This document shows positions 35,342-38,009 of a stretch of DNA of 64,000 bases, piece after piece (position 1 is the stretch's first letter; each line of letters opens with the position of its first letter). This DNA comes from Candidatus Nitrososphaera gargensis Ga9.2 (GTDB lineage Archaea > Thermoproteota > Nitrososphaeria > Nitrososphaerales > Nitrososphaeraceae). The notes below the pieces were generated by a model. That model ran no database searches. It had not been told where the DNA came from and worked only from the letters and a program-made list of their open reading frames with translations. The translations under genes were made by a program, and so were the position numbers. The stretch covers positions 2,604,001 to 2,668,000 of the forward strand of contig NC_018719.1 of NCBI RefSeq assembly GCF_000303155.1, read 5' to 3'.

Positions 35342-35458
35342 TCCGGCACTTTTCTCAAGAGTACACATATCATTAAAGAAAGAGATATGTCCCTCCAACA
35401 TGATGGTGTAGAATGTCATGCCGGTCAGCACGAGCACCGTCGCCTTGAAGTCAAAAGG

Positions 35459-36580
35459 TCAACTACCCACCGCTAAAGCAGGTGGGCTTGTAACTGCCGA
35501 AAAAAGAGGCGCTACAATGGGCTGGTTGACAGCAGCCCTAGCTGCTATATTGCAAGCAGCAACATGATCAGCCATTGCCTCATATCCGCATTCTGTACAC
35601 TTGAAGTGGTTTCGTGTATGTCTGTTTCTTGCGTCAATGTTGTGGCATTTTGGACATTCACGAGAAGTGTTCTTTGGGTCAACGAACTTGACAGGAACAC
35701 CATCCCGCTTTGCCTTGTACTCCACAAACGCTCGTAGTTGTCTGAAAGACCACTTGCTGTGTCTGTCTCGTTGTTGTTTGCGCCCAATAACCGTTGCCCT
35801 AGAGCGTATTCCACTCAAATCTTCTAGTGCAATCGCTCTGAGGGTGCCTTTGGCTTTGGAGACAATGGCTTTTGAGATAACATGGTTAATGTCACGCTTG
35901 AAGCGTTTCTCCCTGCCAGACATCTTTTTCAAATGTCGCTTTGCAGAGCGAGTACCTTTCTTTTGCAGCCTAGCTCGCAATCCATTGTATCTTTTCCTTA
36001 CTTTTTCTACCTTCTCACCACTGAAAACTTGACCATCACTGTCGGTGGCAAGGTTTTCAATTCCAAGGTCAATGCCGATAGCTCCTATTGGATCAAACTC
36101 TGATTCCTCAGGAGCATCGACAACTGCGATGAGGTAGAATTCGCCTTTTCTGTATATCAAATCAGCCTGTCCCCTTATCCTGTCAGACCTTGCCTTTTGG
36201 TACTCTCCGATTCTTGTACGTAGTTTGATCCTGCCTTTCAGCGTTATCAAAGAAACCTTGTCCAAGCCTTTCCACGAAATGTTGCGCTGATCATATTGTA
36301 TTGCTCCAAGTTCTCGGAACACTGGCTTAATGCTCTTGTCTCTTTTGTATGCTTCAACCACTTTGCTTATCACACGGACGGCAAACTGTGCAGATAAGTT
36401 GAACTGTTCTCGCAGTTGATAATAGAACCTCTTTTGCAACTCTACTTTGTTTGCTATCTTCAACCGAAATGCCTGTTCAGCAAGAAAATTTGCTGCTTCA
36501 TTATACTTTCTCATGGTAGCAAGCAATAGGGCCTTTTCATCATCTGAGGTTTCTAGCTTGACTGGCAGGGCTTGAAGCAT
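35459..36580 (-). CDS. tnpB: TnpB-like RNA-guided nuclease/transposon protein
   Basis: 373 residues, ATG 36580. Ruv-C parts: GIDLGIENLATDSDG (Asp), RAIALEDLSG (Glu) and ADHVAACNIAARAA (Asp), with a zinc finger ECPKCHN...KCTECGYEA between. The length is normal for TnpB. These are RNA-guided nucleases whose guide RNA comes from the right end. The stop codon TGA lies at the very end of the element, and the last codons read through the right-end hairpin, so a guide RNA would overlap the 3' coding sequence. All catalytic residues present. Confidence 0.92.
   Translation of the reverse strand: MLQALPVKLETSDDEKALLLATMRKYNEAANFLAEQAFRLKIANKVELQKRFYYQLREQFNLSAQFAVRVISKVVEAYKRDKSIKPVFRELGAIQYDQRNISWKGLDKVSLITLKGRIKLRTRIGEYQKARSDRIRGQADLIYRKGEFYLIAVVDAPEESEFDPIGAIGIDLGIENLATDSDGQVFSGEKVEKVRKRYNGLRARLQKKGTRSAKRHLKKMSGREKRFKRDINHVISKAIVSKAKGTLRAIALEDLSGIRSRATVIGRKQQRDRHSKWSFRQLRAFVEYKAKRDGVPVKFVDPKNTSRECPKCHNIDARNRHTRNHFKCTECGYEAMADHVAACNIAARAAVNQPIVAPLFSAVTSPPALAVGS
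35466..35486 (-). repeat. right-end hairpin of the tnpB element
   Basis: CCCACC and GGTGGG (6-bp stem) around a short loop. On the minus strand it is followed by AGTTGAC at the terminus, the pattern of IS605 right ends. Confidence 0.75.
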
Positions 36581-36622
36581 TTATTGGTATTGATAATATT
36601 GCTCAATACATTTAAGCTTTAT

Positions 36623-36667
36623 AGCGCAATTCCTCCCACGTCTAAAGAACGTGGGCTTCCTTGCGCT
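36623..36667 (-). repeat. left-end hairpin of the tnpB element
   Basis: An inner stem CCCACG/CGTGGG (36635-36655) and an outer stem AGCGCAA/TTGCGCT (36623-36629 and 36661-36667), separated by internal loops. It lies at the 5' side of tnpB. Confidence 0.75.
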
Positions 36668-37156
36668 ATTCGGTGAAAATGACATGATTGACATTACAGA
36701 CAGGGTTGCAGACGCCATCAAGGATGGCGGCATCAAAGACGGAATCGTCACCATATTTGTTTCTGGATCAACCGCGGCCGTGGCAACCATAGAATATGAG
36801 CCGGGACTGAGGAAGGACTTTCCTGCAATGCTTGACAGGGTTGCGCCCAAAGCTATTGAATATGAGCATGACAACACTTGGCATGATGGAAATGGACACT
36901 CCCATGTCCGCGCGTCGTTGATTGGACCCAGCCTGACAGTGCCGTTCAAGGATAAGCGCTTGATGCTTGGAACATGGCAGCAGATAGTGCTGATGGAAAT
37001 GGACACCCGGGCGAGAGCGCGAAATTATTTTGCAAATAATGGGAGAATAATAAGGACTCCGACTCAGACAATCAGCCGGCATATTATTTACCATTCTTGC
37101 GGGAGAGAGGCCAATGGTGACCCGCCTACGCATCAATACATGCTTTTTCCCATTGT

Positions 37157-38009
37157 TTAGCGCTTTGCCGATACCAATATGACGTCATTTGTGAAACTGA
37201 CGGTGCCTATTCTGGGGTCGGCGTGCTTTCTTACAGCATCTGCCACTTTATTACATATCTCATCCTGTCTTGCAGCAGGCAGACCTGCCATCATGGCGCC
37301 AAGCGATCCGGCTGTGCTCCTGACAAAATCTACGAATTCCTTGGGTGAGGGGAGCTTGAAATCACTTAAGATGGCCTCTATGTTGATGTCGTGAAAGCCG
37401 GCCTGCTCAAATTTCTGCCTGAGAAGCTTGGTGTCTGCCAAGCTAAAGGGTCCCGGCGACTCGGGAGGCGGAGGAGGGGTTGCCATCTCTTTCATAACTA
37501 TTTGAAGGGGCACGACAAATGATGGGACTTTATCGGGCGCGGACCAGACAGCCGCAGCTATCCGGCCGCCGGGGCAAGGGCAGCTTTCATTGCTTTCAAA
37601 GTACCAAGAAGATGGCATGAACATCAGCCCAAACCTGCAGACGATGGCATCGATGCTTGAAGGAGGCAGGTGGAGCGATTCTGCATCGGCTTCGTGGAAC
37701 TCGATGATATTTGCCAGACCATTCTCCTTTGCCCTTTCCCTTGCGATGGCAAGCATCGCCGGCGAGAGGTCAATTGCGATGACCTTTCCGGCCGGACCAA
37801 CTTTTCTTGCACAGTTATGGCCGGCTCGCCGATGCCCGTTACTACGTCCAGCACGCGGCTTCCCTGCCGAACTCCAAGCTCTACCAGCCTGTCAGACACT
37901 GGCTGGACGCTTTCTTCAATGACCTTCCACCACTTTTTCCACCCTTCTGCAACGCTGTCTCAGGTCTGGCGTTGCATGACTTGAATTTTTGTGAGTCGAC
38001 GCCGCTCAT
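37157..38009 (-). pseudogene. class I SAM-dependent methyltransferase, several lesions
   Basis: From an ATG near 38009 the frame must be changed to read DSVAEGWKKWWKVIEESV, interrupted by TGA (37960-37962) at a position where the family has Trp. It then gives VLDVVTGIGEPAITV (SAM motif I). Further frame changes near 37800 and 37590 lead to LAIARERAKENGLANIIEF and finally RIAAAVWSAPDKVPSF with the C-terminus to 37157. UbiE-like (Methyltransf_11) family. At least three indels plus one nonsense codon; not functional as read. Confidence 0.75.

What the first reader, a model, noticed from the sequence alone, without database searches (positions are those of the whole stretch)
35418..37050. IS605-type tnpB element inserted in yjbQ with a rejoinable reading frame
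Left flank MPVSTSTVALKSKG and right flank ENDMIDITDRV rejoin in frame across GGT, which fixes both ends to 3 bp. The element has tnpB only, both end hairpins, and the tnpB stop at the right tip, so any guide RNA would overlap coding sequence. The insertion also fixes the target-adjacent sequence: TTTTCA(CC) on the tnpB strand just outside the left end.
Basis: seen in the sequence. Interest (0 to 1): 0.6.

Follow-up and report, generated by a model that had tools for sequence, protein, structure and literature searches.

The report
TnpB-only jumping element inside yjbQ
A small jumping DNA element that carries only a CRISPR-like nuclease gene has landed in and broken the yjbQ gene of an archaeon; it is an ordinary member of a known kind, but its relatives suggest that the last few bases of such elements must match one partner in DNA and another in RNA.

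Summary
A 1,215-bp tnpB-only element (window 35458-36672, tnpB on the minus strand) splits yjbQ; relatives have yjbQ contiguous at this point. It is an IS200/IS605-family element of the tnpB-only (IS1341-type) sort. The tnpB stop lies inside the tip, so the predicted guide-RNA scaffold lies in codons, as known for other TnpBs. The genome's only two tnpA loci are broken, so the element is probably stranded. Each pairing is known separately from ISDra2 or IS608; their joint natural covariation was not found described in the searches named in the report.

The parts
35458..36672 (-). Whole element, 1,215 bp, tnpB-only IS200/IS605 type
   Evidence: Flank comparison with a second copy and end-only copies in the same genome
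36673..36677 (-). Left cleavage site / target TTCAC (constant part TCAC at 36673-36676), left in the flank; probable TAM
   Evidence: TCAC present at the same place in the other copies and relatives
36656..36659 (-). Left DNA guide GL (GAAG), complementary to the target in the IS608 register
36635..36655 (-). Left-end hairpin CCCACGT..ACGTGGG
   Evidence: (left end folded as DNA, z -4.46)
35459..36580 (-). tnpB, 373 aa, intact; D171, E253, D338 and the four zinc-finger Cys are in columns invariant over 10 relatives
   Evidence: Pfam Cas12f1-like_TNB 2e-21, OrfB_IS605 1e-11; alignment A2; PDB profile search
35519..35538 (-). Predicted guide-RNA stem 1 (GGGCTG/CAGCCC); its loop carries the pseudoknot strand
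   Evidence: (fold z -3.81)
35525..35530 (-). Pseudoknot strand GTCAAC (codons V351-N352), complementary to the right tip GTTGAC
   Evidence: covariation over 62 relatives
35488..35517 (-). Predicted guide-RNA stem 2: TTGTAGC 35511-35517 with GTTACAA 35488-35494
   Evidence: single-sequence prediction
35487..35490 (-). Right DNA guide GR (CAAG)
35466..35486 (-). Right-end hairpin CCCACC..GGTGGG
35458..35462 (-). Right tip / right cleavage site TTGAC; contains the tnpB stop TGA (35459-35461)
   Evidence: Flank diverges immediately after ..AC in the right ends compared
35438..35457 (-). Presumed guide segment (flank read through past the tip): CTTTTGACTTCAAGGCGACG
   Evidence: Inference from TnpB biology; TCAC plus this target occurs nowhere else in the genome within 3 mismatches, except this junction itself with 1 mismatch
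35418..35457 (+). yjbQ 5' part (MPVSTSTVALKSK; the codon GGT is completed at 36673-36674)
36673..37025 (+). yjbQ 3' part (UPF0047); matches relatives to MDTRARARN and then leaves the conserved frame before the usual ..IGE stop
   Evidence: Pfam UPF0047 2.8e-35; comparison with 5 relatives

Best explanation
A non-autonomous, tnpB-only IS200/IS605-family (IS1341-type) insertion. Shown by sequence: precise insertion 3' of TCAC on the tnpB strand without target duplication, subterminal hairpins, 4-nt guides beside each hairpin complementary to the cleavage sites, intact TnpB, empty site in relatives. Inferred: a TnpA acting in trans peeled a single-strand circle and pasted it 3' of TTCAC in yjbQ; TnpB binds an RNA cut from the 3' end of its own mRNA, whose scaffold ends at the tip TTGAC and whose guide is the yjbQ flank, and cuts the restored empty site (TCAC + yjbQ flank), so that repair from a sister copy restores the element. 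The element's own right junction is spared because the tip reads TGAC, not TCAC. With both tnpA loci of the genome broken, it is now probably immobile, though TnpB could still defend the locus.
For: Empty site. Ends and TAM: second copy (90% DNA, 94% aa) and end-only copies. Protein. Right tips in the genome: 23 hits against 4 for the reversed pattern; of the 23, 16 end in TTCAC and all 16 have guide GAAG, 6 end in TTGAC of which 3 have CAAG (the other three lack a recognisable 5' arm), 1 ends in TCCAC with GAAG. Tip/pseudoknot pairing: all six positions pair (WC or GU) in 52 of 62 elements against a mean of 13.2 and a maximum of 23 in 5000 shuffles; 9 independent tree contrasts at tip position -3, 8.8 on average matched, none opposite on average. 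Left guide base 4 against target base 5: 26 of 33 against 13.2 shuffled, 0 of 5000 as good. A TnpB with TAM TCAC (AmaTnpB) is known biochemically (PMC10278001, passages). Broken tnpA only.
Against: No RNA or activity data. The TAM of the nuclease is inferred from the insertion site. No Rfam TnpB-RNA family matched this strand, so the RNA scaffold is a prediction. No tnpA of this subfamily was found in the genome; who moved the element is unknown. The two tnpA-bearing elements read by eye have another left site (TTTAG) and guide (AAAC), so even intact they may not have served this element.
Confidence: 0.93

Rival explanations
1. An insertion sequence with a 3-bp target duplication (GGT on both sides), moved by a different kind of transposase.
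For: GGT does occur on both sides of the element here, and ACC (same strand sense as tnpB) on both sides of the second copy.
Against: End-only copies and relatives lack the repeat: L004 ATCACC / GACA, L003 GTCACA / GACT, L059 GTCACA / GACT, L060 GTCACA / GACT. Both cleavage sites end in AC, which accounts for two of the three bases.
Confidence: 0.03
2. A domesticated TnpB (kept for a host function such as RNA-guided regulation) rather than a mobile element.
For: No working tnpA in the genome; tnpB intact.
Against: Catalytic residues and both ends intact, two copies plus end-only remnants, insertion in a gene that is otherwise conserved.
Confidence: 0.03
3. The tip/pseudoknot/guide covariation is an artefact of shared ancestry or of the extraction rule.
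For: Shuffles ignore relatedness; positions -4 and -2 were fixed by the rule; some automatic hairpins are wrong or mis-phased (L117, L134, L145, L147, L150, L161; L133, L151, L164).
Against: The pseudoknot strand was taken by codon position and the tip by distance from the hairpin, neither by complementarity; wrong rows were kept in; tree contrasts at -3 are matched 8.8 of 9, while the control contrast (-3 against -6) is 2.1 same, 1.5 opposite of 9.
Confidence: 0.04

Closest known systems
IS608 (Helicobacter pylori), IS605 group
   Same: Cleavage sites read by 4-nt guides 5' of each hairpin; insertion 3' of a short motif kept in the left flank (PMC5934647, passages)
   Different: IS608 carries tnpA; its sites are TTAC/TCAA with guides AAAG/GAAT, here TCAC/TTGAC with GAAG/CAAG
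ISDra2 (Deinococcus radiodurans) TnpB and its guide RNA
   Same: Guide RNA overlaps the 3' end of tnpB; its last scaffold bases pair with a far upstream strand (pseudoknot) rather than with the predicted strand near the right end (PMC10097598, passages and one section)
   Different: ISDra2 carries tnpA and has TAM TTGAT (PMC8612924, passages); pseudoknot strand at -105 to -103, here at -73 to -68; here six canonical pairs
AmaTnpB
   Same: TAM TCAC; TnpB cuts its guide RNA out of its own mRNA (PMC10278001, passages)
   Different: Sequence relationship to this protein not tested here
Haloarchaeal IS200/IS605 tnpB elements with sense overlapping RNAs (sotRNA)
   Same: Archaeal tnpB elements with RNA overlapping the gene and a pseudoknot between a hairpin loop and the end motif (PMC12558985, passages)
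   Different: The Rfam families named in that paper did not match here

Membership tests
IS200/IS605 family (tnpB-only, IS1341-type) | TnpB with Cas12f1-like/OrfB_IS605 domains | tested here: met
IS200/IS605 family (tnpB-only, IS1341-type) | Subterminal hairpins at both ends and no target duplication | tested here: met
IS200/IS605 family (tnpB-only, IS1341-type) | No terminal inverted repeats | not tested
   looked only at inverted repeats up to 60 nt apart; the ends printed show none by eye
IS200/IS605 family (tnpB-only, IS1341-type) | Insertion 3' of a fixed short motif retained in the left flank | tested here: met
   TCAC in the four own-genome copies that keep a left end of this subfamily
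IS200/IS605 family (tnpB-only, IS1341-type) | Guides pair with cleavage sites | tested here: met
   GL4-N5 26 of 33; GR1-N3 54 of 62, GR4-N5 55 of 62; tree contrasts GR4 6.8 of 8, GR1 only 4 of 9
IS200/IS605 family (tnpB-only, IS1341-type) | Moved as a single-strand circle by Y1 TnpA | not testable with these tools
   Only broken Y1 genes in the genome
TnpB RNA-guided nuclease | RuvC D/E/D and zinc finger intact | tested here: met
   D171, E253, D338, C309, C312, C328, C331 invariant over 10 sequences
TnpB RNA-guided nuclease | Guide RNA with pseudoknot ending at the right tip | tested here: inconclusive
   Pairing supported by covariation; existence of the RNA not testable here
TnpB RNA-guided nuclease | Guided cleavage next to a TAM | not testable with these tools
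   needs biochemistry

The most novel reading that the evidence does not exclude
In this TnpB family the right tip is read three ways at once and evolves under all three: base-paired in single-stranded DNA with the transposase guide (positions N3 and N5), base-paired in the guide RNA with a loop encoded in the tnpB C-terminal codons (positions -6, N1, N3 and perhaps N5), and, in the archaeal clade, serving as the tnpB stop codon. N3 of the tip is G or T in all 67 extracted tips and never the C found at N3 of the TAM, which would keep TnpB from cutting its own element. Natural elements therefore record sets of compensated changes from which TAM and scaffold could be predicted by sequence alone.
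Probability: 0.6. Interest if true: 0.6.

Novelty: new member of a known kind. Interest (0 to 1): 0.42.

Why it matters
The element itself is ordinary. It matters as a well-bounded example: the empty site fixes both ends, and its relatives give a natural data set in which target motif, transposase guides and guide-RNA pseudoknot covary. That makes two points testable: that the TAM of an uncharacterised TnpB can be read from the 4-nt left guide (TCAC/GAAG, TCAT/GAAA), and that a change of the right tip needs two compensations, one in DNA and one in RNA.

Tried and rejected
Target duplication of 3 bp: rejected from other copies. TTTTCA as the motif: rejected, TCAC. Rfam: no TnpB-RNA family on the minus strand; a weak HEARO match lies on the wrong strand, 25.1 bits against a gathering score of 83, and was discounted. 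A first pattern for right ends was mis-spaced and found nothing; the corrected one is. The first automatic extraction of tips picked several wrong hairpins and mis-phased guides; it was replaced, whose remaining errors were kept in the counts. The plasmid search gave six distant relatives at 44-55% identity, not used in the counts. Possibility that tip N1 is read by the DNA guide: no covariation (GR3-N1 46 of 62, the same as shuffled; 0 of 7 contrasts). N5 against the pseudoknot is weak on the tree (3.2 of 8 contrasts). L085 has a left guide GGCG that fits its site poorly.

Rows dropped before counts: 5 of 67 automatic right-end rows for a poor codon anchor (L100, L129, L138, L160, L184); of the loci given to others yielded no right end by the rule, were too short or were duplicates, as listed there; L088 had no C-terminal match. 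In one search, 41 distinct left ends were found, 33 had TCA in the allowed place, and 37 loci gave no left hairpin with the signature. The T, C and A of the left sites are fixed by the rule and are no evidence; only base 5 is.

Full report
What was checked. The window is 64 kb of a 2,833,868-bp single-contig genome (the size fits Candidatus Nitrososphaera gargensis Ga9.2, which is recalled, not tested; a published survey reports 83 IS in that organism, IS200/IS605 the commonest, PMC6563490, passages). On the plus strand yjbQ begins at 35418 and breaks at 35457; its frame resumes at 36673. Between them lies a 1,215-bp element with one gene, tnpB, on the minus strand. In relatives the gene is whole: 29 relative loci were read, 21 gave a contiguous N-terminus automatically, the closest (same genus, 78% identical) reading SNGENDMIDIT where the window gene is split.

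Ends and target. The GGT repeated at both sides leaves several readings of the ends. The second copy (90% identical DNA) and end-only copies in the same genome settle it: the four copies that keep a left end read TTTTCAC, ACTTCAC, AAGTCAC and ATATCAC there, and right ends read ..TAGTTGAC followed by unrelated bases. The element is therefore 35458-36672, the constant target is TCAC, and there is no target duplication; the shared bases come from both cleavage sites ending in AC plus one chance C. Five near-identical relatives in viral contigs (L091-L095) also share TCAC and differ upstream of it.

What it is. TnpB has the Cas12f1-like and OrfB_IS605 domains, intact catalytic and zinc-binding residues and matches solved Cas12f and TnpB chains. 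The genome holds 18 TnpB matches at E 0.001 or better but only two Y1 transposase loci, both broken. Close relatives are patchy: 3 of 70 genomes of the family at E 1e-60, 7 of 400 of the class at 1e-45, 8 of 400 of the order at 1e-35, the window's own genome counted in each.

Anatomy and working. Beside each hairpin lies a 4-nt guide: GAAG on the left, complementary to the target, CAAG on the right, complementary to the tip, in the register described for IS608 (the base-by-base register is my reading of it). About 70 bases upstream of the tip a stem-loop (35519-35538) carries GTCAAC, complementary to the tip GTTGAC. In ISDra2 the tip pairs with such a strand in the RNA instead of with a nearer strand that had been predicted. 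The RNA 35458-35545 folds better than all 200 shuffles (z -3.81; the single-sequence fold pairs the tip with a third strand and cannot show pseudoknots). The stop codon TGA sits in the tip, so every base of the scaffold is also coding; in other families of the same genome the stop TAG sits five bases before the end. Guide RNA overlapping tnpB is known.

Covariation. Relatives were collected from genomes and viral contigs. The pseudoknot strand was taken by its codon position and the tip by its distance from the hairpin, with only T at -4 and A at -2 fixed. Of 67 rows 62 had a sufficient codon anchor. Pairing at the free positions: -6 53, -5 51, -3 60, -1 54 of 62 Watson-Crick, against 22.3, 34.3, 36.4 and 45.8 on shuffling; all six positions pair in 52 of 62 against 13.2. 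Over 33 distinct combinations the result is the same except at -1, where it is weak (25 against 22.4; 406 of 5000 shuffles as good). The DNA guide follows N3 (54 of 62, shuffled 36.0) and N5 (55 of 62, shuffled 41.2), not N1. On a protein tree built without these codons, contrasts that differ at N3 have a matching pseudoknot change in 8.8 of 9 (sign test about 0.004); a matching GR1 change in 4 of 9, none opposite (not significant); N5 with GR4 6.8 of 8, 0.2 opposite (about 0.016); tip -6 with the pseudoknot 5.9 of 8 (about 0.03); the control pair of positions is 2.1 same, 1.5 opposite of 9. At the left end, guide base 4 matches target base 5 in 26 of 33 distinct ends against 13.2, for example TCAC with GAAG and TCAT with GAAA. 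Tip N3 is G in 48 and T in 19 of 67 and never C, whereas the target has C there. I read this as the means by which TnpB, whose guide matches the element's own right flank, is kept from cutting it; that is inference.

In print. Searches in the open-access library led to the two pairings separately, a remark that the pseudoknot imposes sequence constraints (PMC10711439, passages and one section), and no description of the joint covariation; most subscription papers are not in that library, and the papers named were read in passages or single sections only. No paper holding both Nitrososphaera and TnpB was found.

Verdict. An ordinary member of the IS200/IS605 family with unusually clear boundaries, and a comparative result that generalises two known structures.

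Noticed in passing
window 37000-37160: The 3' part of yjbQ leaves the reading frame that 5 relatives share shortly before their common ..IGE ending and stop, so the gene is damaged a second time; a distant paralogue (32%) exists at G000:C1:2718237-2718575.
   Followed up: partly
window 36651-37160: A GTG in the element's left end opens a frame that runs through the junction into the rest of yjbQ (169 aa), so a truncated YjbQ might be made.
   Followed up: no
L025/L026 (G000:C1 near 693.4 kb and 2147.0 kb): The genome's two tnpA-bearing elements are 86% identical over 1,731 bp, have different upstream flanks, and share the same in-frame stop and, as far as read by eye, the same frameshift in tnpA, as if the element moved after its tnpA had died.
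   Followed up: partly
L067 (G000:C1:418814-418833): A remnant whose tnpB end belongs to another TnpB family has a right end like the window element's (TTGAC, CAAG), and its upstream loop reads TTCAAC where that family otherwise has TGGAAC: an apparent right-end swap with a matching pseudoknot change.
   Followed up: partly
L004 and L003 (G000:C1:63.87 kb and 1177.13 kb): Two end-only derivatives of this element: one reduced to about one hairpin with two right tips in tandem, one a few hundred bases long with both ends.
   Followed up: partly
L008 (G000:C1 near 49.5 kb): The second copy sits five bases after the right tip of an element of another family, AGTTCAC-TTCAC-C; the right tips of those families (TTCAC) contain this element's target TCAC.
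   Followed up: no
L009 (G000:C1 near 763 kb): Another tnpB element in the genome looks IS608-like: left TTTAC with guide AAAG, right end near TCAA with GAAT before the hairpin (by eye).
   Followed up: no
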